DNA of 64,000 nucleotides from Candidatus Calescibacterium sp. Its GTDB lineage: Bacteria; Calescibacteriota; Calescibacteriia; Calescibacteriales; Calescibacteriaceae. The notes below the pieces were generated by a model. That model had not been told where the DNA came from. It saw nothing but the letters and a program-made list of their open reading frames with translations, and did no database searches. Position 1 is the first letter of the stretch, and each line of letters begins with the position of its first letter. This document shows positions 3,742-50,603 of the stretch, one piece after another. A program made the translations under genes and the position numbers. The stretch lies in assembly GCA_025060505.1 (NCBI GenBank), contig JANXBU010000007.1, positions 47,856 through 111,855 on the forward strand, written 5' to 3'.

Positions 3742-3747
3742 TATATT
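3742..3747 (+). promoter_or_regulatory. -10-like element for leaderless hsp20
   Basis: TATATT ends 8 nt before the hsp20 ATG, and the overlapping TATTAT ends 6 nt before it. No Shine-Dalgarno sequence fits in that space, so the predicted transcript starts at or next to the ATG. No good -35 is visible. Confidence 0.55.
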
Positions 3748-3755
3748 ATTCAATT

Positions 3756-4199
3756 ATGGAAAGGAAGAGATTACCAAGACTTTTTTCAGAAGGTTTTTCA
3801 AGAGAAATAGAGAGGCTTATTGATGACTTCTTCTCTCCTTTCTTTCCAGAGGAAGCTACGAGATCTTTCTTTCCTTCTATGGATATAATGGAGGATGATA
3901 AGAGCTTGATAATAAAAATGGATGTGCCAGGTATGACTCAGAAGGATATCTCAGTTGAGATACAAGATGATCAACTTATTGTTAAGGGTGAAAGAAAAGA
4001 AGAAGAAGAAATAAAGAAGAAGAACCTTTATGTTTCAGAAAGAAGATATGGAAGTTTTCTGAGAAGGGTAAGGCTCCCAGAATATGTAGAGGGAGATAAA
4101 GCTCAGGCGAAAATAAAAGATGGAGTTCTTACGATAACTATACCGAAAAAGGAGGAAGCCAAAAAGAAATCAGTTTCTGTTAAGATTGAGGGAGAATAA
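3756..4199 (+). CDS. Small heat-shock protein, Hsp20/alpha-crystallin family
   Basis: ATP-independent holdase that binds unfolding proteins. The N-terminal arm (about residues 1-40) is rich in Phe and Arg. It is followed by an alpha-crystallin domain from about 41 to 137, with DKSLIIKMDVPGM, the strand DQLIVKGER and the conserved GVLTITIPKK near the C-terminus. At 147 residues it is typical. It is followed 4 nt after its stop by rpmI on the same strand, so the two are probably cotranscribed, which is an unusual partner. The start appears leaderless, with a -10-like hexamer 6-8 nt upstream. Confidence 0.93.
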   Translation: MERKRLPRLFSEGFSREIERLIDDFFSPFFPEEATRSFFPSMDIMEDDKSLIIKMDVPGMTQKDISVEIQDDQLIVKGERKEEEEIKKKNLYVSERRYGSFLRRVRLPEYVEGDKAQAKIKDGVLTITIPKKEEAKKKSVSVKIEGE

Positions 4200-4203
4200 T
4201 CAG

Positions 4204-4395
4204 ATGAACAAGACTTCAAAAACCGTTACAAAGAGGTTTAAGATAAAAAAGAGCGGAAAGATTAAATACTGGCATTCGAACTGGAATCATTACAAAATTG
4301 GCAAAAGCTCAAGCTGGAAGCGAAAAATAAGAAAGGGTGCTCACATAGATAAAAAAGGTCTACAAGATATTCTGGAAGGTTCCTTAATAAGATAG
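4204..4395 (+). CDS. rpmI: Ribosomal protein bL35
   Basis: Small basic protein of the 50S subunit. The family pattern is KRFKIKKSGKIK near the N-terminus, a central basic stretch with KSSSWKRKIRKG and a hydrophobic C-terminal helix. The 63 residues are standard. I take the ATG at 4204 because it has GGGAGA 8 nt upstream, inside the end of hsp20; an in-frame ATG at 4186 would overlap hsp20 by 14 nt. rpmI normally sits between infC and rplT. Neither is adjacent here; the partners are hsp20 upstream and psd 170 nt downstream. Confidence 0.88.
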   Translation: MNKTSKTVTKRFKIKKSGKIKYWHSNWNHYKIGKSSSWKRKIRKGAHIDKKGLQDILEGSLIR

Positions 4396-4565
4396 GGATA
4401 TTTTATATCTTTTTATCTTTTTATTTATTTACTTTTGCTCTTCTATTAATTTTTTTACCACTGAGAGGCACATATTGTTTTACTAGAGCGTTCTGACTTT
4501 AACTAGTTCGTTTGTATTTTTCTGAAAATAGCAATTCGTGCATTTTGTGAATTTTATTTGAGTTT

Positions 4566-5189
4566 ATGATCAGACCAGAGGGTGTAAAGTTTATTTTTGC
4601 ATCTTTGTTGCTTACTGCTATTGTTTATGTTTTTGCTGGCTTTCTTTTTTCTATACCTTTTTTTGTTTTGACTGCACTTGTTATAAATTTTTTCAGAGAT
4701 CCGGAAAGGTATCCTGATTCTCAAAACGAGGATGATATACTTTCTCCAGCTGATGGTAGAGTTTTTATAGTAGATGAGTCAAAACCAGAGGGTTTAGATA
4801 GTGTTTTTAAAAGAGTAGCGATATTTATGAGTCCGCTAGACGTTCATGTCAACAGAGCTCCATCCTCCGGAGTTATTAAAGAATTAGATAGCAGGTCGGG
4901 TGGTTTTGAAAGAGCTTTTCTTGAAAAGTCAGAGAAAAATGCAAGGTTGATCTGGAAAATATCAGATAGAGATGGAAACACTTTTGTTCTTGTGCAAATA
5001 GCCGGAGCGATTGCGAGAAGAATAAAAGCTTTTAAGAAAAAAGGCGATGAAGTGAAAAGAGGTGAAAGAATAGGGATGATCTATTTCGGATCAAGAGTAG
5101 ATATTTATTTACCGAAGAACTACAATATAAAAGTGAAAATTGGTGATAGGGTTTATTCTGGTAAAACGGTGTTAGCTTCTAGGTCTTGA
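4566..5189 (+). CDS. psd: Phosphatidylserine decarboxylase proenzyme, short archaeal-type
   Basis: Makes phosphatidylethanolamine from phosphatidylserine at the membrane, using a pyruvoyl group formed by self-cleavage. Residues about 8-40 form two hydrophobic segments. The conserved blocks NFFRDPER, LSPADGRV, PLDVHVNRAP and GMIYFGSRVDIYLP follow. Cleavage is expected at the Gly-Ser bond of FGSR near residues 176-178. The 207 residues match the short archaeal/soluble-type subfamily rather than the roughly 300-residue E. coli enzyme. No pssA lies next to it. A weak TTTATT hexamer ends 7 nt before the ATG, consistent with a leaderless start, and no Shine-Dalgarno sequence is seen. Confidence 0.92.
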   Translation: MIRPEGVKFIFASLLLTAIVYVFAGFLFSIPFFVLTALVINFFRDPERYPDSQNEDDILSPADGRVFIVDESKPEGLDSVFKRVAIFMSPLDVHVNRAPSSGVIKELDSRSGGFERAFLEKSEKNARLIWKISDRDGNTFVLVQIAGAIARRIKAFKKKGDEVKRGERIGMIYFGSRVDIYLPKNYNIKVKIGDRVYSGKTVLASRS

Positions 5190-5322
5190 ATTTGATTTTA
5201 CACTTTAATTTTCATTTTAACTTTTATTTTTGAAATTTTGCGGTGTTTTGTAGGATGATACTGCTGTGATAGTTTTGAGTATTCTTAAAAAATCAGTATT
5301 TCAAAAATGTTCATTTTTCTGG

Positions 5323-5331
5323 TGCAATATT
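5323..5331 (+). promoter_or_regulatory. Extended -10 element for leaderless Memo-family gene
   Basis: TGCAATATT is an extended -10 (TG, one base, AATATT) that ends 6 nt before ATG 5338. No Shine-Dalgarno sequence lies between, so a leaderless mRNA is predicted. Confidence 0.55.
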
Positions 5332-5337
5332 AACTGA

Positions 5338-6543: not shown

Positions 6544-6625
6544 TGATAAGAAATAAATAATGATAAGATCTGATTCTCACCAAAAAACTTCAAAACAGCT
6601 TGAGAAGCGATTAAATTTATAGGAT

Positions 6626-7348
6626 ATGCAATTTCTTGTTCTGTTTGTACTCTCAAGCTACATTGAGCTTTGCTACAAAGTTTATTTCGTCTTTGTTGAA
6701 GTTGGAGAAACTTGTATAAAGTATAAGATCAGGGATCAGAATGTTGAGATAAACAGTGTTTCAAGATCGACTAATGTTGGTAAGATTGTACGCAGGGTAT
6801 ATAATGTGGGATATTCTCTGGTAGACAAAGATACTCTCAAACCAAAGATTTTCAAATATTATCAACAGGAATACGGATTCATAAGGACTCAGGAATATGT
6901 ATTTGATACAAATAGAATTTTCGCAAAGATTACAAAGTACAAAGATCCAAAAGATAAAGTTGGGCAGAGAGAAGAATTATCTTATGAGTGGAACAATCAG
7001 TTCGAACCTTATTCAGCGGCTTTGTTTATATTCAAAAACAGCTCAACATCTGGGAATATAGATATTTTCTATGAAAGAAAATTTTACAACATATCATTTT
7101 CTTTTTTGAGAAAGGAATCTATAAACAATCATATTGGTGATTTTGAAGCGAACATTGTTGAGATAACACCACGGGTTGAAACTGAAGGAGCTCTTAAACC
7201 ACGGGGTAGCTGGACTATATGGGTTGACTCACAAAACCATATACCTTTGAAGATGAAGATTGATTTCACATTGGGAAGTATCAATATAGAACTCAAAGAT
7301 ATAAAAGGAGACAGAACTCTTCTCGGGAAGATTGGCAACAATATTTGA
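6626..7348 (+). CDS. DUF3108-like periplasmic protein
   Basis: A 240-residue protein with a short hydrophobic N-terminus (MQFLVLFVLSSYIEL) that may be a signal segment. The rest is beta-rich. It has the layout of the DUF3108 family: an early beta region, a central segment about residues 130-150 (SAALFIFKN) in the place where the family has its D-x-x-S-A-L-Y motif, and a final WTIWVDSQNHIPLKMKIDFTLGSI, which matches the family's closing W-V-x-x-D-x-x-x-x-P-x-x block. Function is unknown; DUF3108 proteins are envelope proteins. TTAAAT lies 9 nt before the ATG with no Shine-Dalgarno sequence. Confidence 0.62.
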   Translation: MQFLVLFVLSSYIELCYKVYFVFVEVGETCIKYKIRDQNVEINSVSRSTNVGKIVRRVYNVGYSLVDKDTLKPKIFKYYQQEYGFIRTQEYVFDTNRIFAKITKYKDPKDKVGQREELSYEWNNQFEPYSAALFIFKNSSTSGNIDIFYERKFYNISFSFLRKESINNHIGDFEANIVEITPRVETEGALKPRGSWTIWVDSQNHIPLKMKIDFTLGSINIELKDIKGDRTLLGKIGNNI

Positions 7349-7427
7349 TCTGTTTCAAGGCTCTCTTGAAAAGATTTTCTTGATATGTTCGCTCAAAATT
7401 TTGATTTTCATTTTTTCTCTTGACATC

Positions 7428-7436
7428 TGATAAAAT
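7428..7436 (+). promoter_or_regulatory. Extended -10 element for leaderless class IV aminotransferase gene
   Basis: TGATAAAAT is a near-consensus extended -10. The hexamer TAAAAT ends 8 nt before ATG 7445, leaving no room for a Shine-Dalgarno sequence. A TTGACA at 7420-7425 is too close to serve as its -35. Confidence 0.65.
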
Positions 7437-7444
7437 TTCCAAAA

Positions 7445-9008: not shown

Positions 9009-9056
9009 ATATATCTAGCAACGATAGAAGAAAAAATAATCAAAGGTGCAGAATTT

Positions 9057-9503: not shown

Positions 9504-9510
9504 TTCTTTC

Positions 9511-9516
9511 TAAAAT
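9511..9516 (+). promoter_or_regulatory. -10-like element for leaderless ppiD-like gene
   Basis: TAAAAT ends 7 nt before ATG 9524, in the short gap after the preceding gene. The gap has no Shine-Dalgarno sequence. Confidence 0.55.
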
Positions 9517-9523
9517 GTAGCTT

Positions 9524-12334: not shown

Positions 12335-12340
12335 CATAAT
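12335..12340 (+). promoter_or_regulatory. -10-like element for leaderless secD
   Basis: CATAAT ends 6 nt before the secD ATG at 12347. There is no Shine-Dalgarno sequence between them, in contrast with the perfect one in front of secF. Confidence 0.6.
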
Positions 12341-13969: not shown

Positions 13970-13977
13970 AAGGAGGT
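13969..13977 (+). promoter_or_regulatory. Strong Shine-Dalgarno sequence of secF
   Basis: AAAGGAGGT lies 8 nt before ATG 13986 and overlaps the secD stop codon. It shows that this organism uses classical ribosome binding inside operons. Confidence 0.85.
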
Positions 13978-18533: not shown

Positions 18534-18539
18534 AATGTA
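18534..18539 (-). promoter_or_regulatory. -10-like element for leaderless alcohol dehydrogenase gene
   Basis: On the minus strand TACATT ends 8 nt before the ATG at 18525. No Shine-Dalgarno sequence is present. Confidence 0.4.
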
Positions 18540-18719: not shown

Positions 18720-20405
18720 TTAATCAGTTTCGCTCTTTTTTTCTATTTTTGATATTGAGAATATTTCTTTTCCTGCTCTCTCAAAAGACTTTATTTTCAC
18801 CAAACTAAAGTTATATCTGTTTGATATTTTTTCTATTTCGCTGTGAGGTTTCAGCCAGCTCAAGAGAATATATTTCCCTTCATTCAGTTTAAGTATATGT
18901 GGTATCAGCTCAGGTTTTATGTTCCCCCACAAGATTGAATATGACCAATCATAGATTTTGATATTGCCTTCTGTTATTACATCAAGGTTTATGAGAGCTG
19001 AAAAATTTGATATTTCTGTTATATTTTGTTGAAATATAAAATCCTTTATCTCTTTCTGAATTTCCATTGAAGTGTTCTGAAAAGATACCCCTTCTGTTTC
19101 AAGTTTCTTGACAAATTTCGTAAGACTTTGGGTTTGTAGAAAAACATAAAAAATAGGTATTGTAAAAAACAGTACACCGTATTTTTTCTGCATCTGATTC
19201 CAGATAAAGATTCCTATACTTGATATAAAAATCGGGAATATTACCAGAAATCTTCTTGGAAATCCATAGTGTGGAAATGTTATACTTTCGAAAATTGTGT
19301 AGATAAGTATAATTGCCGAGACCAATCTCAGATTCTTGTCTATAATGCAAAATATAAAGACCAAAATAAAGACAAAGCTTATTTTTGACGCTGAATAATT
19401 GTAGTCTATTACGAGGTGTTTCCCAAAACCGATATTTCCTATAAGTTCCATAAGATCTAAAAATCCAATCTTTATTGATTCAAAGAAGTTCTGGTTTGTT
19501 TGTTGGGACAAAATGAATTTCAATGTTGTTCTCGGGAAGAACGAAAAGAAAGATATATCTCCTGCACGAGGTAAAACTTCATCTAATTCGTAGAATGCTA
19601 TACTGTGAATGATATACGGCAGGGTGAATATTAAAGTAAGTGTGCTCATAAAAGAAAAATTTCTAATTGTGTCTTTTATATCTCTGCTGAGAAAGGATAA
19701 AACTACAAGATAAGAAAGAAATAGATTTATTCCAAACTTTATGTATGAAAGAGATAGCATTCCAAGTGCGATGAAAGAAAGAAGAAAATTTCTATTGATT
19801 AGAAAATATATTGAGATGGTCAAGAGAAAGGAACACAGAAGGTAAGTAAAAGATGAAGATTGAACAAGAAACATAAGGAATGAGGAAGAGATCAGAAACA
19901 AAGAAACTCCAAAAAGTACAGAGGGGATTTCCAAACCGGATTTTCTGAAGATGAGAATAAGTATAGGAACTATAAGTATTCCAAAAATCACACAAGGTAT
20001 TCTTGCGAACAGAACTTCATACTTTATCATAAAAATATTCTGGATGGTGTATGGAAGAAATCCTGTATGAAACCATATCAGTAGTGGGAATTCTATATCA
20101 TTGAGTACAATTAAGCCCATTGGTGGCAGAGATTGCGAAACTATTTTTATTCTCCAAAGCTCTTTTGCGATTGCATTGTTGGGGGTATTTTTGTGTTCGT
20201 TGAAAAGAATTTTATACTCTCCGTTTTCTTTAATTATTCCGACTACTCTGTTTCTATCTTTTATATATATTTCGTCTTCTATTGTTCCTATCAATTCAAT
20301 TTTTGATATGAGTTGAAATATAAAGTATCCAAATGATATTACAAATATTAGAATTGATACACTTTTGGAGTTTATTTTCAGTTTGTGAATTTTGAGTTTC
20401 TCCAT
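18720..20405 (-). CDS. Polytopic membrane protein, probable GT-C glycosyltransferase
   Basis: A 561-residue protein with roughly ten hydrophobic helices between residues 17 and 420 and a soluble C-terminal part of about 140 residues. An acidic pair in the first extracytoplasmic loop (GTIEDEIYIKDR) and the overall arrangement resemble ArnT/PMT-type GT-C glycosyltransferases that use lipid-linked sugars, but I see no further diagnostic motif. The neighbours on the opposite strand are a SPASM radical SAM protein and a GT2 glycosyltransferase, which supports a role in surface glycans. TATATA ends 7 nt before the ATG. Its first codons overlap those of the divergent radical SAM gene if the latter starts at GTG 20385. 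Confidence 0.6.
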   Translation of the reverse strand: MEKLKIHKLKINSKSVSILIFVISFGYFIFQLISKIELIGTIEDEIYIKDRNRVVGIIKENGEYKILFNEHKNTPNNAIAKELWRIKIVSQSLPPMGLIVLNDIEFPLLIWFHTGFLPYTIQNIFMIKYEVLFARIPCVIFGILIVPILILIFRKSGLEIPSVLFGVSLFLISSSFLMFLVQSSSFTYLLCSFLLTISIYFLINRNFLLSFIALGMLSLSYIKFGINLFLSYLVVLSFLSRDIKDTIRNFSFMSTLTLIFTLPYIIHSIAFYELDEVLPRAGDISFFSFFPRTTLKFILSQQTNQNFFESIKIGFLDLMELIGNIGFGKHLVIDYNYSASKISFVFILVFIFCIIDKNLRLVSAIILIYTIFESITFPHYGFPRRFLVIFPIFISSIGIFIWNQMQKKYGVLFFTIPIFYVFLQTQSLTKFVKKLETEGVSFQNTSMEIQKEIKDFIFQQNITEISNFSALINLDVITEGNIKIYDWSYSILWGNIKPELIPHILKLNEGKYILLSWLKPHSEIEKISNRYNFSLVKIKSFERAGKEIFSISKIEKKSETD

Positions 20406-21497
20406 CCTAATTTATATAAGGTGCGAGTATCAAAACTTTATAACCAGAAGTATATAATTTACAAAAGATACATAAAAAGAATCGTTTCAGATTTTATCTT
20501 CACGAGGTACACTTCTTTTAGAAAGATACTGAACCTTTTTTTGGTTCTTATCAATCACTACATAATAAGAGGTAAAAAAGTTTATGCATATCCCATAAAG
20601 ATCACCGTTGATCCGACAAGTTATTGTAATTTGAGATGTCCTTTGTGTCCAACGGGAAGAGGAGATATTAGTAGGACGAAGGGTTTTATGTCCTTTGACA
20701 CCTTCAAAAAGATAATAGATGAACTCAAAGATTTCATATTTGTTGTAGATTTATTTAACTGGGGAGAGCCTTTTTTGAACAAGCAGATATTTGATTTTAT
20801 AAGTTACGCTCATTCAAAGAGAATAAAAACGAGAGTAAGCACTAATCTGAATTTTTTCAAAGATGATTTTGCACTCAAACTTATAGAAAGTGGTCTTGAT
20901 GAGCTTGTAGTTTCTATTGATGGGGCAAGCGAAGAAACATATTCAAGATACAGGATTGGAGGAAATTTTACAAAAGTTATGAATAATCTTGAGCGTATTG
21001 TTGAGACTAAAAGAAAAATGAAGTCAAAGAAACCAAAGATTCTATGGCAGTTTATAATTATGAAACACAACGAATCTGAAATAGAAAAAGCTGTAAGTAT
21101 ATCAAAAAGATTGGGAATTGAAATAAGCTTTATACCAACGAGAGCAGATATGGGTGAGGAGGTGAGACTTTCAGATGAAGAAAAAATACAGAGGTACAAA
21201 GATTGGTTTCCTTCTCAGAGATTTTCCAGATACAACGACAGAGAAAAGAAAATAAAGCCTAAAACTTGTTTGTTTTTATGGACACAGGGAACTATAAACT
21301 GGGATGGATCTGTTTCCGGATGCTGTGCTATATATCCACAATCTGCTGATTTTGGAAATATCATTTCGGATGGAGGATTTATGCGGGTCTGGAACAATCA
21401 GAAATTTCAGTATGCTCGGTACATTGTTAAAAACAGAATCCCAGATGAATCTGTAATATGTTCTGGTTGCATAAAAAATGGCTTTATAGAACCTTAG
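20385..21497 (+). CDS. Radical SAM protein with SPASM domain
   Basis: An iron-sulfur enzyme that cleaves S-adenosylmethionine to start radical chemistry. The CxxxCxxC cluster motif is CNLRCPLC, preceded by ITVDPTSY, at about residues 75-90. The GxIxxxGEP-like strand is FNWGEPF. The C-terminal SPASM region has CLFLWTQGTINWDGSVSGCCAIYP and ends SVICSGC, with cysteines for auxiliary clusters. Substrate is unknown; the adjacent GT2 and GT-C genes suggest surface polysaccharide or lipid-linked glycan work. GTG 20385 lies inside the start of the opposite gene; GTG 20421 is an alternative. The first 70 residues are basic and helical. Confidence 0.85.
   Translation: MNFEFLHPNLYKVRVSKLYNQKYIIYKRYIKRIVSDFIFTRYTSFRKILNLFLVLINHYIIRGKKVYAYPIKITVDPTSYCNLRCPLCPTGRGDISRTKGFMSFDTFKKIIDELKDFIFVVDLFNWGEPFLNKQIFDFISYAHSKRIKTRVSTNLNFFKDDFALKLIESGLDELVVSIDGASEETYSRYRIGGNFTKVMNNLERIVETKRKMKSKKPKILWQFIIMKHNESEIEKAVSISKRLGIEISFIPTRADMGEEVRLSDEEKIQRYKDWFPSQRFSRYNDREKKIKPKTCLFLWTQGTINWDGSVSGCCAIYPQSADFGNIISDGGFMRVWNNQKFQYARYIVKNRIPDESVICSGCIKNGFIEP
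20413..20418 (-). promoter_or_regulatory. -10-like element for leaderless GT-C gene
   Basis: TATATA, part of the palindrome TTATATAA at 20412-20419, ends 7 nt before the minus-strand ATG at 20405. The same palindrome could be read as a -10 for the divergent gene. Confidence 0.4.
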
Positions 21498-26104: not shown

Positions 26105-26110
26105 ATCATA
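26105..26110 (-). promoter_or_regulatory. -10-like element for leaderless sdhA
   Basis: On the minus strand TATGAT ends 8 nt before the ATG at 26096. The spacer AAGAAGAA is only a poor Shine-Dalgarno match. Confidence 0.5.
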
Positions 26111-30923: not shown

Positions 30924-30929
30924 ATATTA
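30924..30929 (-). promoter_or_regulatory. -10-like element for leaderless purF
   Basis: On the minus strand TAATAT ends 8 nt before the ATG at 30915, with a T-rich spacer and no Shine-Dalgarno sequence. Confidence 0.5.
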
Positions 30930-37889: not shown

Positions 37890-38618
37890 CTAATTTTGGT
37901 TTTCTGCTTCTATTTCTTTGATGTTTGTCACATACACAGCTCCTGAGAGGTCAGATAAAGCTATTATTTTTTTGTCTTTTGATACATAGGCTACTGGTAT
38001 ACCGAATGGTGAATTGTTTTTGCTGCCAGCTGTTACCAGAAGTGTATTGGGAGGAACTTTCTCAAAATCAATTCCTCCATATGTTGCAAATATTTTCATT
38101 TTTCCTGATGGATCTCCCTGTAGTATCGCTCTGAAGCCAAGTCCCAAAAATATCACATCAACATAGAACATCTGAGAAAATACTGTAATAACTTCGCTTG
38201 TATCTAAACCTACATCTACAACTCTGCCAATTACAAATCCATCTTTAAGAACAAAAGAATATTTTTCAATTCCGTCTTTTTGACCAAGTGATACGAAGAA
38301 TTTCTGTGGGAAGCTATCTTGCGGTATCATTGAGATCTTTCCTATGTTTATATCAACTTTCTGATTGACTATTTTTATAGTGTTTATGGTGCTTTTAATT
38401 TGCTCGAGTAAGAAGGAATTTTGGAATTCAAAGCTTGTTTGTAAAGTTTCTTTTGATTTAATTAGCTGTTTTTGAAGGTCCTGTCCGCACAGATCCTGAT
38501 GGCTTGTATAAAGTGATTGAATCTTTTCCATCCCGGGAATTTTGATAAAGAGATTAGCTTCATATATTATGTAGCAAAGTGCTACAAGTGCGGCGGAGAT
38601 AATTATTCTTAGAATCAT
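37890..38618 (-). CDS. mreC: Rod shape-determining protein MreC
   Basis: A 242-residue protein with an N-terminal membrane anchor (residues 3-22), a helical coiled-coil stretch to about 105 and a beta-rich C-terminal domain with QKFFVSLGQKDGIEKYSFVLKDGFVIGRVVDVGLDTSEVITV, followed by IDFEKVPPNTLLVTAGSKNNSPFGIPVAYV, the MreC core pattern. It links MreB filaments inside the cell to wall enzymes outside. Its ATG overlaps the mreB stop codon (ATGA), so the two are translationally coupled. Confidence 0.88.
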   Translation of the reverse strand: MILRIIISAALVALCYIIYEANLFIKIPGMEKIQSLYTSHQDLCGQDLQKQLIKSKETLQTSFEFQNSFLLEQIKSTINTIKIVNQKVDINIGKISMIPQDSFPQKFFVSLGQKDGIEKYSFVLKDGFVIGRVVDVGLDTSEVITVFSQMFYVDVIFLGLGFRAILQGDPSGKMKIFATYGGIDFEKVPPNTLLVTAGSKNNSPFGIPVAYVSKDKKIIALSDLSGAVYVTNIKEIEAENQN

Positions 38619-39664
38619 CTAGCAGATGCATTGACTCTGGCGAGCAATCTTATATCCTCAAGAACTTTTGCGCAACCTTTGACGACCCCGAGTAAAGCAT
38701 CTTCTGATATATGTGCTTTTATGCCAGTTTCCCGTTCAACGAGGATCCCAAGCCCTCTGAGTAAGGATCCTCCACCCGAGAAGAATATTCCCTTTTCATA
38801 TATATCAGCAGATAATTCTGGTGGAGTTTTTTCCAGTGTCATCTTTATTGCGGAGATAACAGCTCTAACTTGTTCCGCACAAGCTTCGACTACATCTTTC
38901 TGGGTGACTATTATGTTTCTTGGAATTCCGGTTACCGCATCTCTTCCGAAGACTTCCATTGATTTTTCAGGTTCTATTTCAATTGCAGCTCCTATGTTTA
39001 TTTTTATTTGTTCTGCGGTTCGTTCTCCGATGTGTAGACTATATTTTCTCCTTATGTAATTTACTATTGCTTCATCGAATTCATCTCCTGCTACTTTCAG
39101 AGATGTGGAGCATACAATTCCGGCCATGGATATAACAGCCACTTCTGTTGTTCCGCCACCAATATCAACTATCATGTTCCCGATAGGTTGATCTACGGGG
39201 AGTCCAACTCCAATTGCTGCTGCCATGGGTTCTTCTATCAGAAAAACATCAGCGGCTCCAGCGAGTTCTGCTGCTTCTATAACAGCTCTTTTTTCAACAG
39301 GAGTTATTAAGGAGGGAACTCCGATAACAACACGTGGTCTGAAAAATCTGTTGCCTCCTTCCATTGCTTTTTTGATAAAATAAGAAAGCATGGCTTCGGC
39401 AACTTCAAAGTCTGCTATAACTCCGTCTCGCAGGGGTCTTATTGCTTTTACATCTGCTGGAGTTCTTCCAAGCATTTTTTTTGCTTCGTTTCCAACTGCG
39501 ACTACGTTCTTGACACCTTTGTATTCCATCACGGCAACAACAGAGGGCTCGTTTATTATGAGACCTTTTTTGGAGTGCCAAACCAGAGTATTAGCTGTTC
39601 CAAGATCTATCGCTAAGTCTCCGCTTGCTCTGAATATCCTTGAGAGAAAATTGAAGAGCTTCAC
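38615..39664 (-). CDS. mreB: Rod shape-determining protein MreB
   Basis: Actin-like ATPase that forms membrane filaments directing lateral wall growth. Phosphate-binding loop LAIDLGTANTLVW at the N-terminus, then VIGVPSLITPVEKRAVIEAAELAGA, IVDIGGGTTEVAVISM and FFSGGGSLLRGL. The frame is open upstream into tRNA-Thr, so the longer ORF is not real. The GTG at 39664 gives the usual family N-terminus and lies only 9 nt after the tRNA-Thr discriminator base. No separate promoter is visible between tRNA and gene, so mreB mRNA may be made by 3' processing of the tRNA. The 349 residues are normal. Confidence 0.95.
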   Translation of the reverse strand: MKLFNFLSRIFRASGDLAIDLGTANTLVWHSKKGLIINEPSVVAVMEYKGVKNVVAVGNEAKKMLGRTPADVKAIRPLRDGVIADFEVAEAMLSYFIKKAMEGGNRFFRPRVVIGVPSLITPVEKRAVIEAAELAGAADVFLIEEPMAAAIGVGLPVDQPIGNMIVDIGGGTTEVAVISMAGIVCSTSLKVAGDEFDEAIVNYIRRKYSLHIGERTAEQIKINIGAAIEIEPEKSMEVFGRDAVTGIPRNIIVTQKDVVEACAEQVRAVISAIKMTLEKTPPELSADIYEKGIFFSGGGSLLRGLGILVERETGIKAHISEDALLGVVKGCAKVLEDIRLLARVNASAR

Positions 39665-39673
39665 TTCACAAAG

Positions 39674-39745
39674 AGCCCATGAGGGGACTTGAACCCCTGA
39701 CCTCCTCCTTACCAAGGAGACGCTCTACCCCTGAGCTACATGGGC
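39674..39745 (-). tRNA. tRNA-Thr(GGT)
   Basis: Minus-strand cloverleaf: acceptor stem GCCCATG paired with CATGGGC, D arm GCTC/GAGC, anticodon loop TTGGTAA with anticodon GGT, and T arm AGGGG/CCCCT with TTCAAGT. The discriminator is T at 39674. The CCA end is not encoded (next bases are CTT). It is 2 nt downstream of tRNA-Gly and directly upstream of mreB. Confidence 0.95.
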
Positions 39746-39970: not shown

Positions 39971-39976
39971 TTTAAA
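39971..39976 (+). promoter_or_regulatory. -10-like element for leaderless MaoC-like gene
   Basis: TTTAAA ends 7 nt before ATG 39984. No Shine-Dalgarno sequence is present; the hexamer is a weak -10 match. Confidence 0.35.
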
Positions 39977-39983
39977 ACTCTAT

Positions 39984-41426: not shown

Positions 41427-43886
41427 TTATTTCCCTTTTACGAAGGGATTTTGGACTCCCTGAACTAGTTGTTGCGAGATTGCTTGGAAGAAAGTCATAA
41501 TGTTTCTTGTATATGCAATCAGCTGGTTTGCTCTTGCCCATCTTTCATACAGGAAGGCTCTATAAGATTCGATCTCTTCTTCGATTTTTGCTAATTTCTG
41601 GTCAATACCGGTGAGTTCAGATTCGATTCTATCTTTTGAAGCACCTATTGCTCCCTTTGAAGATATGAGTTCTCCTATCTCTCTTCTCATGTGCTCACCG
41701 AAACCGAGTTTTGCGGATTCTTTGTTCTCCTCTCGCTTGAGTATACCTAAGAATTGTAGAAGATTCGGATCTCCACCCCAAGCAGTTGGATCTGTTTTGA
41801 CACCTCCTATTTCTATGTAATACTTCGCTCCTTCTTGCTTCACACTTGCTATGTTTGAACCTGCTGCTGTGTTTATTTTGTTGACAATTGCTGTAAGAGA
41901 ATCGGTTGATATATCTATTCCTGTAACTGTTACACTTCCTCCGCTATCAAGGGGAATAACTAGATTCCCAGATATGTTGTTTGCAGTATCCTGAGTTGAT
42001 GTATCGCTGTCGACTGAATTTCTTGCAACCGCTGTATCTGAGAAGAACATATCTGTTCTTACAGTTGTTGTGTTTATTTGGTTTTTTATCTTGAAATTGG
42101 TTGAGGATGCTAAACCAAGTGAAGTGAGCAAGTTCCCGCTTACCTCAGCAATAGAAGGAAGTCCACCAGAGATTTTCTCAATAACGAGTTTTTTATTTGC
42201 GCCAACGTTTTTTACATAAGCTCTAACAGAATCAAGAGCGGAGCTTATCTTCAATGCGATGTCTTTCAGATTATCGGTTGGATTTATTAAAATGCTTTTA
42301 CCTTCAACGAGAATTTCTCCAGAAAGTCCAAGAGGTGTAGTATCAGATGAAAACGCGTTACTTACAAACTTTTCTGATACAGCTGATGTCAAAGCTCTTA
42401 CTGTGGTTTCAAAATCTGTCTGGAGAGCTTCTGATAACTTTGCTTGATTTAGTGAAAGTTTTCCTTCTCTGTCTATTGAGAACCCAAGATCTTGTATTGA
42501 TATAACTCTGACAGAGCCATCTGGTTGTCCAACTTCTACCAATCCAGAAAATGCTCTTCTCATCGCAGATTTTGTGGCAGATATGGAAAAGTCAGCTGAA
42601 AGTGGTCCGGCTTTTCCTGTTTTCTCGTTGAATTTGACTTGCTGATTTATGAAATCTATGAGTTTATTCCAAGCCTCAACAAAATCGTTGAAGTATTTTG
42701 TTATTCTTGTAGTATCTCTTGTTATTGAGACTTGTATAGTGTCAGTAGAAGCTTTCAAAGCATTGAAAGTTATACCTGAGATACCGGTTTCCTCTGGGGT
42801 AAAAGAGTTATCTTGTGATGTAAAAGTTGTTCCGTCAACAGATATCTGAGCATTTTGTCCAGCATTAACGACATTTTGAAAGTTTCTTGAAAGAACCCCG
42901 AGTGTTTTTAGAACTGTTGTAGCGTTATCGTCAAACGTAGATGCGTTTATTTTTAATCTGTAAACATTTCCCTCCTGAATAATCTCGGCTGCTGTAGACG
43001 AACCAAGAGCTGTATCTATTGCGTTTTCTATATCTTGCAGTGTCATTGTGTTCAGGTCTATGTTAACAGGGGTTCCATTTATGAGTACTGTTCCAGACGG
43101 AGCAGATCCGGGAGTAAAACCTATCAGTTTTCCAACCTCGTTTCCTGTTCCGTCCTTTTTGGTAAAGGCATCTGATAGAGCTGATGTTCCGGATGGTGTT
43201 TTTATTATATCTGGGCCAGCAGAGAAGAAGCCAAGTTGTTGTAGAGCGTTTCCAGAGGAGTCTACAAGTGTTATGTATTCTTTGTTTGTTCCGGTTTTTG
43301 ATGCTGAAATTACAAGCTGAACTCCGCTACCAACATTTTGTATGTATGCACTTAACCCTGTTCCAAGCTCATTGATTTTATCTCTAAGTTGTTTTAGTGT
43401 CCAGTTGGGATCTACTGTAAGAACCTTTGCATTTGCGGTATCAGTTCCTTTTATAACTATTCTTGAACCTGATGTAACACCGAGAGAGCTTAATGTAATA
43501 TTGGAATTTGCAAATGTGTTTGATCCAACTTTCCATGCTTGCGCTACCTGATTGACCTGAACATCAAAGTCCCCCTGAACAGCTTCGGAGCTCGTAGAAA
43601 CAGATAATATGTTTTTTGGATCTTCCGATCCAGTCATGTTTCTTAAATTGGGTGCAAAGACCCTATAGGATAAAGCAGAGCCTATTGCCTGAGATGTCGA
43701 AAGAAAATCAAGAGCAAGTTTTCTCAAAGTGGATATAGCATCTGATCTATCTTGAATTAAGCTCTTTCTTTCTTGAATAGGTTGAGTTAAAATCTTTCTT
43801 CTGAGTTCAACAAGGTTTTCTACTATGTCCGAAACATTAAATGGAGAAAGTATGTTTGGCATGAATACGTTTCCGAGTTCTGCCAT
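41427..43886 (-). CDS. fliD: Flagellar filament cap protein FliD, long form
   Basis: Caps the growing flagellar filament and helps flagellin fold. The N-terminal FliD domain has SPFNVSDIVENLVELRRKILTQPIQERKSLIQDRSDAISTLRKLA. The C-terminal domain ends with helical KDRIESELTGIDQKLAKIEEEIESYRAFLYERWARANQLI. At 819 residues it is much longer than the usual 450-670. The middle holds about four copies of a hook-IN-like unit (WTLKQLRDKINELG; LQDIENAIDTA; LKDIALKISSA; LTAIVNKINTA), each followed by a short beta pair. The start has a perfect AAGGAGGT 10 nt upstream. It is the only flagellar gene in the window. Confidence 0.9.
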   Translation of the reverse strand: MAELGNVFMPNILSPFNVSDIVENLVELRRKILTQPIQERKSLIQDRSDAISTLRKLALDFLSTSQAIGSALSYRVFAPNLRNMTGSEDPKNILSVSTSSEAVQGDFDVQVNQVAQAWKVGSNTFANSNITLSSLGVTSGSRIVIKGTDTANAKVLTVDPNWTLKQLRDKINELGTGLSAYIQNVGSGVQLVISASKTGTNKEYITLVDSSGNALQQLGFFSAGPDIIKTPSGTSALSDAFTKKDGTGNEVGKLIGFTPGSAPSGTVLINGTPVNIDLNTMTLQDIENAIDTALGSSTAAEIIQEGNVYRLKINASTFDDNATTVLKTLGVLSRNFQNVVNAGQNAQISVDGTTFTSQDNSFTPEETGISGITFNALKASTDTIQVSITRDTTRITKYFNDFVEAWNKLIDFINQQVKFNEKTGKAGPLSADFSISATKSAMRRAFSGLVEVGQPDGSVRVISIQDLGFSIDREGKLSLNQAKLSEALQTDFETTVRALTSAVSEKFVSNAFSSDTTPLGLSGEILVEGKSILINPTDNLKDIALKISSALDSVRAYVKNVGANKKLVIEKISGGLPSIAEVSGNLLTSLGLASSTNFKIKNQINTTTVRTDMFFSDTAVARNSVDSDTSTQDTANNISGNLVIPLDSGGSVTVTGIDISTDSLTAIVNKINTAAGSNIASVKQEGAKYYIEIGGVKTDPTAWGGDPNLLQFLGILKREENKESAKLGFGEHMRREIGELISSKGAIGASKDRIESELTGIDQKLAKIEEEIESYRAFLYERWARANQLIAYTRNIMTFFQAISQQLVQGVQNPFVKGK

Positions 43887-43896: not shown

Positions 43897-43904
43897 ACCT
43901 CCTT
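43897..43904 (-). promoter_or_regulatory. Strong Shine-Dalgarno sequence of fliD
   Basis: On the minus strand AAGGAGGT lies 10 nt before ATG 43886. The gene appears to stand alone, so this is a leadered transcript in contrast to many neighbours. Confidence 0.85.
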
Positions 43905-43987: not shown

Positions 43988-46069
43988 ATGATAATAAAGT
44001 CTACCCTCTTGATATTAATGCTTTCCTTTATTCTTTTGATTTTTGCATTATATTCCTGTGGTAAAACTCAGGAAGTTGAATTTGCAAGGAAATTTGAGGA
44101 AATAGAACAACTGTTCCAAAGAATTTATGAAGAGGCGGAGGAGAGGGTTGATCTGAATTTCAAGGATGTATTGACTCAATGTGTAGTCCCTCGGATGCAG
44201 TATGATCTTGAATTATTTCTGAACCCAATATCTGAACCAGAGAGGATTTCATCTGCTTTGTATATAAGCAGAGAGTTAGATATCCCAACTATAATCTCTC
44301 TTGGATTGAAAGGTATTTTTGATTATGATTGTGATGAAGATGAATGTAAAATAAGCAATACAAAGGTGATCAAGCACAGCATATATTTGGAGGAAAGAAA
44401 AGTTCAGGAGGGATACAGATTTGAAAGAGTCTCTGTTGAATCGGAGTATGCAAAGTTTGAGGCAATATCGTATTATTCTCCGACTTCGGAGATTGTTTCA
44501 GAAATAAAAATTCAGTGGGAAGATGGTTTCAATGAAAACATAACATATGCTTCAAGAATTACTCAGGTAGGTGAGTCCAAAACAGGAAGGTTTATAATCA
44601 TATCTGAAGAAAAATCATGTTATACAATCATTACGTCGGACTCACTATCATCCAGAAGCTTTGAAATATTACTGAGGAATAAGAAAGGATATGAAAAATT
44701 TTCCGGTGAATTAGAAAGTAATTCTTTGTGCTCTCAGAAGCCAAAAGGGTATATTGATAAAATTCAAGGAATAGAAGAAATAGGAAATAAATGTGATTCA
44801 GTTTTTGAATCTTCAAATGTAGAAACAATTTTCAGAAGAATTCAGCAGGTGGCCGAAGATGATGGCACCTGGTTCAAACAGGCGAGAAAAATGTCGGAGC
44901 AATTTGATATGTTCAGGGATGAAATAAAACTCATTGAGATTGCAAGAGAGCTTGAAAGTTTTTCCAAAGATTTTTCATTCTCGGTTTTATACGAAGATAA
45001 TAAATTGAACGAACTTCTTTCAAAATTAGATCAGATAGAATCAAATTTGAAAAGTATTGAGATTGCTTTTCCAATAGATCTCATCATGCATACACCTTAC
45101 GATTTTTCGGTACCTGTTTCATTTCAGTTTAATGAAACAGAAAAATTGCTTTTTCTGGCGTATTTGAACTTTCAAAGATTTATTCTCAAGTATTTTGAAT
45201 CTGCCAATCTTGAATTAGACGAGAATACAAAGAACCAAATTTTGAATACAATAAGATCTTCTCCGAATCTAACACTTAAAGATAAAGTTGAATTGCTCGT
45301 AAAATCTTTGAAGTCTTCATCTGAATTTCTTTCAATAAAAGATCAAGCAGAAAGACAGAAAGCTTACGAATATTTCATGTCAGCTCTTACTAATTTGATT
45401 CAGTTTTCACAAAGTTTAACATTGCCGGAAAAAACGGGCTTTGCAAAGTTTATAAAAGGTGTACCTGCTATACCAAGTTCAATAACCGAGATTGCTGATG
45501 TATATATACAACATAAGGATTTATCTTATTACCTTGAAATAATCTCAGCGTTTCTGAAAGCTATATACTCTTACTCTGGTAAGCAGCAAAGTTTCTTAAC
45601 ATATTTTTTTGAAAGAATATCTCAAAAATGGCGTTACGATATGTTTCAGATAAATCTGAAGAATCTTATTATGAGCAGTACCAGAGCTATTCTTCCTGCA
45701 ATGTATGTTGAAAGAGACAGTTTTATTATTGAGTGGGAATGCGGTATAGACGGCATAATATATGCTTATCAGATATTTCCAAGGAGTTTGACGTGTCAGG
45801 AAATTTTGGTGGATTCGAAACATTTTTTTCATCCTCAGTATATAACTGATGGAAATGAGATAAGGTCTAATCCTTTCTATAATAATGGTCTGGAACGAGA
45901 TGGAATAAGAACAAGAGCACCGTACATATTTTTCTCTGATCCGACTTTTTCTGGGGCAATCAAAATCACCAGATCAGATCTTTTGGAAGTTTGTGGAAAC
46001 ATTCCAACAGAAAAAGATAAGAAAATTTGTGAAATGGCTGAGTTGATTGCGTTTTTATCAAGCGAATGA
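43988..46069 (+). CDS. Large lipoprotein of unknown function
   Basis: A 693-residue protein with an N-terminal signal (MIIKSTLLILMLSFILLIFALYSCG) ending in an imperfect lipobox L-Y-S-C. The region about 30-290 is beta-rich with many Glu and Tyr. A C-terminal part (about 290-690) is largely helical, with segments such as FDMFRDEIKLIEIARELESF and LRSSPNLTLKD-type helices. Pairs of cysteines (DYDCDEDECK, WECGIDG, LTCQE, EVCGN, KICEMA) could form disulfides. No family is recognised. It is divergent from fliD, about 100 nt apart, but nothing in it looks flagellar. Confidence 0.6.
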   Translation: MIIKSTLLILMLSFILLIFALYSCGKTQEVEFARKFEEIEQLFQRIYEEAEERVDLNFKDVLTQCVVPRMQYDLELFLNPISEPERISSALYISRELDIPTIISLGLKGIFDYDCDEDECKISNTKVIKHSIYLEERKVQEGYRFERVSVESEYAKFEAISYYSPTSEIVSEIKIQWEDGFNENITYASRITQVGESKTGRFIIISEEKSCYTIITSDSLSSRSFEILLRNKKGYEKFSGELESNSLCSQKPKGYIDKIQGIEEIGNKCDSVFESSNVETIFRRIQQVAEDDGTWFKQARKMSEQFDMFRDEIKLIEIARELESFSKDFSFSVLYEDNKLNELLSKLDQIESNLKSIEIAFPIDLIMHTPYDFSVPVSFQFNETEKLLFLAYLNFQRFILKYFESANLELDENTKNQILNTIRSSPNLTLKDKVELLVKSLKSSSEFLSIKDQAERQKAYEYFMSALTNLIQFSQSLTLPEKTGFAKFIKGVPAIPSSITEIADVYIQHKDLSYYLEIISAFLKAIYSYSGKQQSFLTYFFERISQKWRYDMFQINLKNLIMSSTRAILPAMYVERDSFIIEWECGIDGIIYAYQIFPRSLTCQEILVDSKHFFHPQYITDGNEIRSNPFYNNGLERDGIRTRAPYIFFSDPTFSGAIKITRSDLLEVCGNIPTEKDKKICEMAELIAFLSSE

Positions 46070-46845: not shown

Positions 46846-46851
46846 TTGATA

Positions 46852-47478: not shown

Positions 47479-48017
47479 CTCGGTATAAATGGTTCCCATT
47501 CTGAGTAAAATATCAGGTCAATATCTCTTGCATTCAGAACGTTTACAAAGGGTATTCTTGGTTCTTTGAGTAGAAGCATTCCTGCTTCCTCTGGTGTTCT
47601 ATCCCCCTTCTTTATGTTGCAAGACATACAGGCTGTAACAACATTTGACCACTCAGTTTTGCCACCTCTTGACCTTGGAACTACATGATCTATTGTGAGA
47701 TTTTTGTAAGAAAATTTTTGACCGCAGTACTGGCATCGAAAAGCATCTCTCATAAACACTCCAAGGCGAGATATTTTCGGACGGTTGAACCTTGGACCAA
47801 CATCTGTTTCGGCAATTATTATCTTTGGTATCCTTATTCTCCTTGAAACTGTGGATATATAGTCTTCTCCATCTGATGGTTCAAGTTCTATCCACTCCCA
47901 TATATCGTAAGTGAAATTATCTTCATCAAGTACGTAGGCAGATTCTCTGAAAAGAAGCGAGAAAGCGTGTCTTATATTTGTGACATAACAGGGGATATAA
48001 TTTTTGTTCAATACCAA
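47475..48017 (-). CDS. HNH endonuclease family protein
   Basis: A McrA-like HNH nuclease with the zinc knuckles CQYCG and CMSCNIKKG flanking the catalytic NLTIDHVVPRSRGGKTEWSNVV. The N-terminal block VLNKNYIPCYVTNIRHAFSLLF is typical of the widespread bacterial HNH proteins of about 170-190 residues. Their role is unknown; linkage to nth here suggests DNA repair. The frame starts at TTG 48017, but it is open upstream to a TGA at 48111, and a strong Shine-Dalgarno and ATG at 48114 lie just out of frame, so the true start is unsettled. Confidence 0.82.
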   Translation of the reverse strand: MVLNKNYIPCYVTNIRHAFSLLFRESAYVLDEDNFTYDIWEWIELEPSDGEDYISTVSRRIRIPKIIIAETDVGPRFNRPKISRLGVFMRDAFRCQYCGQKFSYKNLTIDHVVPRSRGGKTEWSNVVTACMSCNIKKGDRTPEEAGMLLLKEPRIPFVNVLNARDIDLIFYSEWEPFIPR

Positions 48018-48383
48018 AACGGCTCTTTTGACAATCTTCTTTCGATTATCTCCGAATAAAAAACCGTTTCGGCCAAAAAAATCATCTATATTATCTTTTA
48101 TGATGAAGGCTCATCAAACCTCCTTTCTTCATTTTATTATATAATAAATTTTACCTATGAATAATTTATTTTTTTGATCAATAATTAAGTATAATACTTG
48201 TTTTGCAGGTAGGATAAATAGACAAAAATTCACCGAAAACTCTGTTTTTATTTGCAATGCAATATGTCAGCTAGTGATTGAGTTTGATGTTTGAATCATT
48301 TTGATTTTTTGGTTGAATTTCCAATAAATTTGCTAAAAAAGATAAAACTTTTAAAAATAGCTATATTTTGGTATTTTTCAGTT
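48018..48383 (+). other. Divergent intergenic region with palindromic promoter
   Basis: The 366 nt between the HNH operon and pnp contain the perfect palindrome TTTATTATATAATAAA at 48133-48148, with TATAAT on both strands. On the minus strand it is followed by AAAGGAGG and ATG 48114, which opens only a seven-codon frame. On the plus strand the pnp extended -10 lies at 48369-48377. The rest is AT-rich without further features. Confidence 0.6.
48369..48377 (+). promoter_or_regulatory. Extended -10 element for leaderless pnp
   Basis: TGGTATTTT is an extended -10 whose hexamer TATTTT ends 6 nt before the ATG at 48384. There is no Shine-Dalgarno sequence. This fixes the pnp start inside a longer open frame that begins at 48291. 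Confidence 0.6.
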
Positions 48384-50603
48384 ATGAGGATAGGCACTAA
48401 AATAGATGGTGTAGATCTAGAGGTAATAGTTGGAGAGGTAGCTGGTCAAGCAGATGGTGCATCTATGGTAAGATATAACGACATTGTAGTATTTACTGCT
48501 GCGACTTCGTCGAAAAAGAATGTTCCAGGTGTTGACTTCTTACCATTGACAGTGGAGTTCAGAGAGAAGTCTTACGCTGTTGGAGAGATACCCGGAGGAT
48601 TTTACAAAAGAGAAGGGAAGCCTACTGAAAAGGAAATTCTTGTTTCGAGATTAATCGATAGATCTGTAAGACCTCTTTTTCCTGATGGGTATGTAGAAGA
48701 TACTCAGATAATATCTTATGTTCTTTCATCAGATGGAAGTAATATGGAAGATATAATTGCAATAAACACAACCGCTATAGCTCTGCTGGTGTCTGACATA
48801 CCATTTTATATACCTGTTGCTGCGGTAAGAATCGGAATGGTTGGAGACAAATTTGTAGTTAATCCAACAAGAGATGATGAAAGAAAAACTCTTGATCTTG
48901 TTGTTGCAGGAAACGAGCAGGGTTTTGTTATGGTTGAAGGTAGAGCGAATTTCATACCAGAGGAGAAGTTCCTGAAAGCTCTTGATTTAGCGCATCAGAA
49001 GATAAAAGAGATAATCAATTTTCAAAAGAAGGTCTTAGAGGTAGCCGGAAAACCAAAAAGAGAGTTCAAACCCATAACTTTCTCGGAAGAAATAATACAA
49101 AAAATTTCATCAAAGTATGATTACAGAGATGTTGTTTTGCAGACTAATAAGAAATCGAGAAGAGAGAAAGAGAAACAGATTCTTGAGGAGATACTGAAAA
49201 ACTTGGACGAGTTTTATCCAAAAGATGAGAATTTTTCTGATGAAGAGAGGAAAGCAATAGTTCAGCATTCTTTTTTCGAATACATAAGGCGAGGTATAAG
49301 GAGGACCATAGTTTTGGAGAAAAGAAGAATAGACGGAAGAGGTCCGGATGATATAAGAGAAATAAATGTTCAGTTAGGAGTTCTACCGCGTGCTCATGGT
49401 TCCGCAATATTTACAAGAGGTGAGACTCAGGCGTTGGTCTCTGTTACTCTCGGGACCCCAAAAGATATACAAACGGTCGAGTTCTTCGGAGTTGCTTCGG
49501 AAGTAGAAACAAAAAGGTTTATGCTACACTACAATTTCCCTCCGTTCTCGTCAGGAGAGGTTAAACCAATAAAGGGACCTTCTAGACGTGAGATAGGACA
49601 CGGATACCTTGCTGAAAAAGCTCTTGCCCCGCTTATACCTGATGAAGAGAAATTTCCATACACAATAAGGGTTGTTTCCGATATTCTTTCCTCAAATGGT
49701 TCAACTTCTATGGCATCTGTTTGTGGTGGAAGTTTAGCACTTTTCGATGCAGGAGTTCCTGTACCACATCATGTAGCCGGTGTAGCTATGGGTGTTATAA
49801 CCGAACCAGAAGGATATGAGGTTATAACAGATATTTTGGGAGATGAAGATCACATTGGCGATATGGATTTCAAAATAGCTGGATCCAAAAATGGTATAAG
49901 TGCTGTTCAAATGGATTTAAAAGTTTTCAGTATATCTCCAGAGATATTGGCGGATGCGGTTTCAAGAGCGAAAAAAGCGAGAGACAAAATAATAGATTTA
50001 ATGACAGATCACATATCAAGTCCAAAAACTATCTCAGTTTACGCTCCAAAGTTTTCAAAGGTCAAAATAGATGTTGATAAGATCGGCTCACTAATAGGGC
50101 CAAATGGAAGAAATATAAAGATGATAGTTGAAAAGACGAAATCTGATGTTGAAATAGATCAGGATGGTAATGTCAAAGTTTTTGCTCCAAACGAACAGAA
50201 ACTCAGAGAAACTCTTGACCTTATAAATTACTTTACAGCTGATGTTGAAGTTGGAAAAACTTACAAAGCCAAAGTAAAAAGAATTTTACCAAATGGTGCT
50301 CTTGTTCAGTTGATTCCATCACTCCAGTATGCCTTTATGCACATATCGCAAGTAGATACGAAAAGAATTAGTAAAGTAACAGAATCTTTGAAGCCAAATG
50401 AAGAAATTGAAGTGAAAGTTACAAAAATAGAGGAGGATGGCAGAATTCTGGTTTCAAGAAGAGAAGCAATGGAGGAACAACAACAAATTGAGCATAAACA
50501 CTATCCAGAGCGTAAACATCATGTAGAACACAAACATCATCATACTGAGCAAAGACATCGTAGGAATGAGGAAACACATTGGAAGCATAAGAAAAAGGGA
50601 TAG
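48384..50603 (+). CDS. pnp: Polynucleotide phosphorylase with His-rich C-terminal tail
   Basis: Degrades RNA 3' to 5' using phosphate. Two RNase PH domains are present (KNVPGVDFLPLTVEFREKSYA; HYNFPPFSSGEVKPIKGPSRREIGHG; VSDILSSNGSTSMASVCGGSLALFDAGVP), with the catalytic DILGDEDHIGDMDFK. A KH domain follows (DVDKIGSLIGPNGRNIK) and an S1 domain (GKTYKAKVKRILPNGALVQL). The last about 44 residues form an odd tail with 11 histidines and many Lys, Arg and Glu. I start at ATG 48384, the family's MRIG-type N-terminus, giving 739 residues. A decayed gene overlaps its 3' end. Confidence 0.96.
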   Translation: MRIGTKIDGVDLEVIVGEVAGQADGASMVRYNDIVVFTAATSSKKNVPGVDFLPLTVEFREKSYAVGEIPGGFYKREGKPTEKEILVSRLIDRSVRPLFPDGYVEDTQIISYVLSSDGSNMEDIIAINTTAIALLVSDIPFYIPVAAVRIGMVGDKFVVNPTRDDERKTLDLVVAGNEQGFVMVEGRANFIPEEKFLKALDLAHQKIKEIINFQKKVLEVAGKPKREFKPITFSEEIIQKISSKYDYRDVVLQTNKKSRREKEKQILEEILKNLDEFYPKDENFSDEERKAIVQHSFFEYIRRGIRRTIVLEKRRIDGRGPDDIREINVQLGVLPRAHGSAIFTRGETQALVSVTLGTPKDIQTVEFFGVASEVETKRFMLHYNFPPFSSGEVKPIKGPSRREIGHGYLAEKALAPLIPDEEKFPYTIRVVSDILSSNGSTSMASVCGGSLALFDAGVPVPHHVAGVAMGVITEPEGYEVITDILGDEDHIGDMDFKIAGSKNGISAVQMDLKVFSISPEILADAVSRAKKARDKIIDLMTDHISSPKTISVYAPKFSKVKIDVDKIGSLIGPNGRNIKMIVEKTKSDVEIDQDGNVKVFAPNEQKLRETLDLINYFTADVEVGKTYKAKVKRILPNGALVQLIPSLQYAFMHISQVDTKRISKVTESLKPNEEIEVKVTKIEEDGRILVSRREAMEEQQQIEHKHYPERKHHVEHKHHHTEQRHRRNEETHWKHKKKG

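What the first reader, a model, noticed from the sequence alone, without database searches (positions are those of the whole stretch)
3742..48386. Many genes look leaderless, with a -10 hexamer 6-8 nt before the start codon
Seen: the -10-like hexamer ends 6-8 nt before the start for hsp20 (TATATT/TATTAT), the Memo gene (TGcAATATT), the class IV aminotransferase (TGaTAAAAT), the ppiD-like gene (TAAAAT), secD (CATAAT), pnp (TGgTATTTT), purF (TAATAT), sdhA (TATGAT), the alcohol dehydrogenase (TACATT), the GT-C gene (TATATA) and the MaoC-like gene (TTTAAA). These starts have no Shine-Dalgarno sequence. Internal or alternative genes (secF, nuoK, nuoM, nuoN, fliD, ferritin-like) have strong ones. 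Known: sigma-70 starts transcription about 7 nt after the -10, so this geometry gives leaderless mRNA. Such mRNA is common in Actinobacteria and Deinococcus-Thermus but not the rule in most Gram-negative bacteria. The genome may use a mixed leaderless/Shine-Dalgarno system, with extended -10 promoters replacing -35 elements.
Basis: partly seen in the sequence, partly recalled or inferred. Interest (0 to 1): 0.75.

Follow-up and report, generated by a model that had tools for sequence, protein, structure and literature searches.

The report
Leaderless gene starts in hot-spring bacteria
In this uncultured hot-spring bacterium (phylum Calescamantes) roughly two in five genes appear to have their promoter directly against the start codon, so their messages should begin at or within a few bases of the coding sequence; this way of starting genes is known from other phyla but, as far as I could find, has not been described in this one.

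Summary
The window belongs to a 2.28 Mb Calescamantes (Calescibacterium family) draft genome. In a 596 kb sample, non-SD operon-first genes carry TANNNT ending 6-9 nt before the start in 39% of cases, against 13% elsewhere upstream (p=6e-22). This also holds without the window (p=2e-19) and in two relatives (41% and 41%). It is absent in Clostridia and E. coli run the same way, and present in Deinococcus deserti. Seven other A/T hexamer patterns and 4,417 random intergenic ATGs show nothing comparable. A joint start-and-signal model puts the class at about half of operon-first genes and 30-45% of all genes; Shine-Dalgarno covers 19-26%. SD-led first genes have their -10 further upstream. So the 'mixed leaderless/SD' reading is supported. 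The 'extended -10 replaces -35' part is not: TG is at background. No TTGACA was found at the -35 place; instead an A-T-A tract block lies 26-42 nt before the -10, where UP elements lie. The hand-picked list is uneven: 7 of 11 have a strict TANNNT. The first/internal split is only partial. Leaderless genomes are a known kind; this adds an unexamined phylum. 5'-end RNA mapping is still needed.

The parts
3742..3749 (+). -10 of hsp20: TATATT (8 nt before ATG 3756), overlapping TATTAT (6 nt)
   Evidence: P(leaderless class)=0.95
5326..5331 (+). weak -10 candidate of Memo gene: AATATT, 6 nt before ATG 5338
   Evidence: P=0.66 (which prefers the register CAATAT at 7 nt); not kept in relatives
   Evidence: P=0.98
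7431..7436 (+). -10 of class IV aminotransferase: TAAAAT, 8 nt before ATG 7445
   Evidence: P=0.97
9511..9516 (+). -10 of ppiD-like gene: TAAAAT, 7 nt before ATG 9524; gene lies 20 nt after its neighbour
   Evidence: P=0.98
   Evidence: P=0.96
12335..12340 (+). -10 candidate of secD: CATAAT, 6 nt before ATG 12347
   Evidence: P only 0.30, but the four relatives carry TACTAT next to their secD start
18534..18539 (-). -10 of alcohol dehydrogenase: TACATT, 8 nt before ATG 18525
   Evidence: P=0.91
20413..20418 (-). weak -10 candidate of GT-C gene: TATATA, 7 nt before ATG 20405
   Evidence: P=0.54
   Evidence: P=0.97
26105..26110 (-). -10 of sdhA: TATGAT, 8 nt before ATG 26096
   Evidence: P=0.73
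30924..30929 (-). -10 of purF: TAATAT, 8 nt before ATG 30915
   Evidence: P=0.90; G001 and G003 carry TAAGAT 7 nt before purF
   Evidence: P=0.95
   Evidence: P=0.94
39972..39977 (+). doubtful -10 of MaoC-like gene: TTTAAA, 6 nt before ATG 39984
   Evidence: no TANNNT at spacer 5-10
48372..48377 (+). -10 of pnp: TATTTT, 6 nt before ATG 48384 (MRIGTKIDGVDLE...)
   Evidence: my gene finder chose an upstream TTG instead, a start error that dilutes the signal
13971..13976 (+). SD AGGAGG of secF (contrast case)
   Evidence: P(SD)=0.99
56656..56661 (+). SD AGGAGG of nuoK (contrast case)
58871..58875 (+). SD AGGAG of nuoM (contrast case)
   Evidence: P(SD)=0.98
60302..60307 (+). SD AGGAGG of nuoN (contrast case)
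   Evidence: P(SD)=0.97
43898..43903 (-). SD AGGAGG of fliD (contrast case; operon-first yet SD-led)
   Evidence: P(SD)=0.98

Best explanation
In this Calescamantes lineage a large share of genes (about half of operon-first genes, 30-45% of all) have the sigma-70-type -10 element (consensus TAAAAT/TATAAT, strict core TANNNT) placed so that RNA polymerase starts at, or 1-3 nt before, the start codon. The mRNA is then leaderless or nearly so, and translation should begin by recognition of the 5'-terminal AUG/GUG without Shine-Dalgarno pairing. A second set (about a fifth to a quarter of genes) is SD-led (AGGAGG) and has its -10 further upstream. Shown here: the motif, its position, its specificity, its recurrence in relatives, its absence in SD organisms, and the shift in SD genes. 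Inferred: that it is the working promoter, the transcription start, and 70S/5'-AUG translation.
For: De novo motif search with an order-3 background finds TAaAaT in non-SD first genes, spacer 6-10, log-likelihood 85 against 19-22 in simulated nulls; the same search in internal genes gives no positioned TA motif. TANNNT at spacer 6-9: own 85/219 v 12.9% (p=6.4e-22), without window 76/196 (p=1.7e-19), G003 64/158 (p=3.7e-21), G002 30/73 (p=1.8e-6); Clostridia 4/24 and E. coli 2/55 at background; D. deserti annotated starts 9/27 v 3.1%. Other [AT][AT]NNN[AT] patterns have z at most 2.9 against 14.7 for TANNNT; 4,417 random intergenic ATGs 9.9% v 9.8%. SD-led first genes lack the -10 at 5-9 nt and show it at 15-24 nt and beyond. 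Joint model: 52% and 44% of first genes in own and G003, 1-2% in Clostridia and E. coli; TTG starts 2/230 in the class. tRNA genes show TANNNT mostly 9-14 nt before the mature 5' end, fitting a promoter element unconnected with start codons. Anti-SD intact; RNAP alpha CTD and sigma region 4 present.
Against: No RNA data. The spacer mode is 7-8 nt, 1-2 nt longer than in D. deserti (6) or G002 (6), so a 1-3 nt leader is as likely as none. About 30-45% of genes fit neither class, and some of the class is overfit. Only 46 operon-first genes had orthologue-confirmed starts; 19 had TANNNT at spacer 5-10 against 7-14 in equally wide control windows, a weaker contrast. The Memo -10 is not kept in relatives. 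Non-SD internal genes in the own genome also show the peak (24% v 7%).
Confidence: 0.85

Rival explanations
1. The start-proximal A/T signal is a translation element, for example a U- or A-rich ribosomal protein S1 site or a non-canonical ribosome-binding site of the Bacteroidetes type, within an ordinary leader.
For: Upstream regions are very AT-rich, and Nakagawa et al. 2017 (PMC5397173) warn that such biases near -10 may reflect S1.
Against: The signal is the precise TANNNT hexamer, not general A or T richness: seven equally AT-rich patterns are near background. It is coupled to a T/A-tract block at a fixed distance upstream, lost in genes without the hexamer. SD-led first genes carry the same hexamer further upstream.
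Confidence: 0.08
2. The peak is an artefact of AT-rich sequence and gene-start choice.
Against: Gene starts for the main tests were chosen by coding potential only, blind to upstream motifs. Positional and random-ATG controls, other genomes and other patterns all exclude it.
Confidence: 0.02
3. These promoters are real but transcription mostly starts elsewhere (other promoters further upstream), and the start-proximal -10 is secondary.
For: About half of operon-first genes show no clear start-proximal -10; no RNA data exist here.
Against: Non-SD first genes show no second -10 peak at 20-60 nt, and without an SD a leadered transcript would lack the usual signal.
Confidence: 0.05

Closest known systems
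TA-led leaderless genes of bacteria (Zheng et al. 2011, PMC3160421)
   Same: TANNNT about 12 bp before the start, mixed with SD-led genes, enriched in some phyla; D. radiodurans up to 46.1%
   Different: Their list of groups has no Calescamantes. In their low-GC genomes (Lactococcus) a TG before the box is strong; here TG is at background
-10 region adjacent to ORFs in Deinococcus-Thermus (Zhong et al. 2025, PMC12340547)
   Same: A -10 motif a few bp before the ORF drives leaderless expression without needing a -35, shown by reporter assays there
   Different: There in GC-rich genomes and TAnnnT; here TAAAAT at 36% GC, spacer mode 7-8 rather than 6 (D. deserti), and an A/T-tract block upstream
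GeneMarkS-2 leaderless bacterial class (Lomsadze et al. 2018, as summarised in PMC9581028)
   Different: The original paper was not held, so I could not check whether any Calescamantes genome was in its set
UP element of rRNA-type promoters (E. coli; from my own knowledge)
   Same: A-tract, T-tract, A-tract in about -54 to -38 from the expected transcription start; alpha CTD present in the genome
   Different: Derived only from alignment statistics; no binding data; degenerate

Membership tests
Bacterial leaderless (TA-led / GeneMarkS-2 leaderless) genome class | TANNNT-like motif positioned about 12 bp before many starts, beyond chance | tested here: met
Bacterial leaderless (TA-led / GeneMarkS-2 leaderless) genome class | Enriched in operon-first over internal genes | tested here: met
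   39% v 24% (own), 41% v 7% (G002), 41% v 16% (G003); difference is partial in the own genome
Bacterial leaderless (TA-led / GeneMarkS-2 leaderless) genome class | SD-led genes coexist and 16S keeps an anti-SD | tested here: met
   AGGAGG class 19-26% of genes; 16S ends GGATCACCTCCTTT
Bacterial leaderless (TA-led / GeneMarkS-2 leaderless) genome class | mRNA 5' end at or within about 5 nt of the start codon | not testable with these tools
   needs 5'-end RNA sequencing
Extended -10 promoters | TGn directly before the -10 hexamer | tested here: not met
   4.6% v 4.7%; 4.8 v 5.9, 5.2 v 4.3, 7.4 v 4.5%
Classical sigma-70 promoter | TTGACA 15-19 nt before the -10 | tested here: not met
   at least 4/6 match in 6-11% at spacers 15-19, 3-8% at 10-14; de novo search finds no TTGACA
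UP-element promoter | A/T-tract block at about -59 to -38 bound by alpha CTD | tested here: inconclusive
   A-T-A block present and tied to the -10 (AAA 127 v 73 expected; pooled signal above all 200 shifted nulls, single genomes not significant alone); alpha CTD present; binding untested
Non-canonical A/U-rich ribosome-binding site (Bacteroidetes type, S1) | General A- or U-rich bias before the start, not a hexamer | tested here: not met
   only TANNNT peaks

The most novel reading that the evidence does not exclude
A deep-branching thermophilic Gram-negative-type phylum that expresses close to half of its genes leaderless, from promoters made of a -10 plus an UP-like A/T-tract block, with neither a -35 hexamer nor an extended -10, and with Shine-Dalgarno in only about a fifth to a quarter of genes.
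Probability: 0.4. Interest if true: 0.55.

Novelty: new member of a known kind. Interest (0 to 1): 0.42.

Why it matters
It adds an uncultured, deep-branching phylum to the short list of bacterial groups in which leaderless genes are a main expression mode. That bears on whether leaderless initiation is ancestral or tied to hot or extreme habitats. It also has a practical side: gene callers tuned to Shine-Dalgarno will misplace many starts in these genomes, as the pnp start here shows. The upstream A/T block without -35 or TG gives a testable promoter model.

Tried and rejected
Motif search with order-0 background: found SD first, then T-rich runs; replaced by order-3 background. Extended -10 and TTGACA: not found. 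10-nt periodic AT signal upstream: the best-fitting period was 9-14.5 nt depending on the genome, so it is a local A-T-A block, not a long periodicity. Hard-assignment start refinement collapsed to 'no signal' for the -10 class because of its prior cost and is not used for that class; the soft version worked. Orthologue-confirmed starts gave only 46 operon-first genes, low power. In the Thermus plasmid sample the de novo search returned a TTGAC-like motif, not a -10, in 21 genes; too few to use. The original GeneMarkS-2 paper is not held.
Full report
What the window is. PurF from the window is 69% identical to that of Candidatus Calescibacterium nevadense. The window lies in a 2.28 Mb, 115-contig, 86%-complete draft genome; four relatives of the same family are held. 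One of them (G004) carries the same purF upstream and start sequence as the C. nevadense record. So this is the candidate phylum Calescamantes (EM19), a likely Gram-negative-type hot-spring lineage (PMC4791363). The 16S 3' end is GGATCACCTCCTTT, with an intact anti-Shine-Dalgarno.

How it was tested. I wrote a gene finder that chooses starts by coding potential and start-codon type only, blind to upstream motifs. Genes were split into operon-first (divergent neighbour, or at least 100 nt gap) and internal (less than 25 nt after a same-strand gene). Start errors remain (for example pnp) and should dilute, not create, a positional signal.

With an order-3 background, de novo search of non-SD operon-first genes returns TAaAaT with spacer 6-10, mode 7-8 (log-likelihood 85 against 19-22 in simulated nulls); internal genes give no such positioned motif. 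TANNNT ends 6-9 nt before the start in 85 of 219 genes (39%) against 12.9% for other upstream places; without the window 76 of 196; G003 64 of 158; G002 30 of 73. Clostridia and E. coli, run the same way, are at background. Deinococcus deserti with annotated starts gives 9 of 27 against 3.1%. The peak is specific: the seven other [AT][AT]NNN[AT] patterns reach at most z=2.9, TANNNT z=14.7, and 4,417 random intergenic ATGs give 9.9% against 9.8%.

Size of the class. The plain excess (about 27 points of non-SD first genes) is a lower bound because of start errors. A soft joint model of start choice, -10 and SD gives 52% and 44% of operon-first genes for own and G003, and 1-2% for Clostridia and E. 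coli. Over all genes it gives 45%, 40% and 30% in the three genomes, with SD at 19-26%. These figures carry some overfit (a baseline of about 0.5-1% of genes per spacer position). TTG starts are nearly absent in the class (2 of 230), as expected for leaderless mRNA, though the model's start prior already disfavours TTG.

Why promoters and not a translation signal. SD-led first genes lack the -10 at 5-9 nt and show it at 15-24 nt and beyond. tRNA genes, which have no start codon, show TANNNT mainly 9-14 nt before the mature 5' end. Aligned on the -10, A-tracts are enriched at 26-30 and 37-40 nt and T-tracts at 32-36 nt before the hexamer (AAA at -29..-27: 127 v 73 expected). The same A-T-A order appears in each of the three genomes; the pooled signal exceeds all 200 shifted nulls, while the single genomes are not significant on their own, and it vanishes in first genes without the hexamer. 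That is where UP elements lie; the alpha CTD is present. This link is inference.

Extended -10: TG is at background. The list: 7 of 11 pass a strict TANNNT test. The contrast of first and internal genes: strong SD 14% v 21% in the sample, much closer than in the window; the joint model gives 20% v 34%. fliD is first and SD-led; the ppiD-like gene is close behind its neighbour.

Conservation. The relatives carry TACTAT next to the secD start (G001 and G003 at 9 nt, G004 further, G002 at 8 nt if its ATG two codons upstream of the aligned codon is the start) and G001 and G003 carry TAAGAT 7 nt before purF, in otherwise diverged DNA. Memo shows none in the relatives. Among 46 orthologue-confirmed first genes, 19 have TANNNT at spacer 5-10 in the own genome, 19 in the relative and 10 in both. 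So the mode is kept in the family, gene by gene with turnover.

Against what is known. Zheng et al. 2011 found TANNNT about 12 bp before starts in 207 of 953 genomes, up to 46.1% in D. radiodurans (PMC3160421). GeneMarkS-2 work predicts 21.6% of bacterial species with leaderless transcription in up to 40% of transcripts (PMC9581028). Zhong et al. 2025 show by reporters that a -10 next to the ORF suffices in Deinococcus-Thermus (PMC12340547). A text search for 'Calescamantes' and 'leaderless' gave no paper shown with both terms among the 20 listed. So this is a known mechanism in a newly examined phylum.

Limits. No RNA or protein data; spacer mode 7-8 allows 1-3 nt leaders; 30-45% of genes fit neither class; draft genomes; sample drawn mostly from larger contigs; controls are small (24 Clostridia, 55 E. 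coli and 27 D. deserti non-SD first genes).

Noticed in passing
38615-39715 (-): The longest ORF call begins inside tRNA-Thr (39673-39745); tRNA-Gly lies next to it. Such tRNA overlaps produced false gene starts in the sample (T-loop motif GTTCAAATCC) and were filtered.
   Followed up: yes
41427-43886 (-): FliD is 819 aa; the 231-position FliD_C model is spread over about 450 residues, which suggests a large insertion.
   Followed up: no
43988-46069 and 18720-20405: Two long proteins (693 and 561 aa) without any Pfam match; the first begins like a lipoprotein or membrane-anchored protein.
   Followed up: no
G000, G002, G003 samples: Strong Shine-Dalgarno sequences are rare in all classes (19-35% in first and internal genes by the joint model, 79-98% in Clostridia by the same method); many internal genes have neither signal.
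   Followed up: partly
L142 (G000:C29): A 483-aa sigma factor with region 3 (HPIRMPGHIIEL) and region 4.2 (TRERVRQIE) resembling housekeeping sigma, although no -35 or TG element is seen in promoters.
   Followed up: partly
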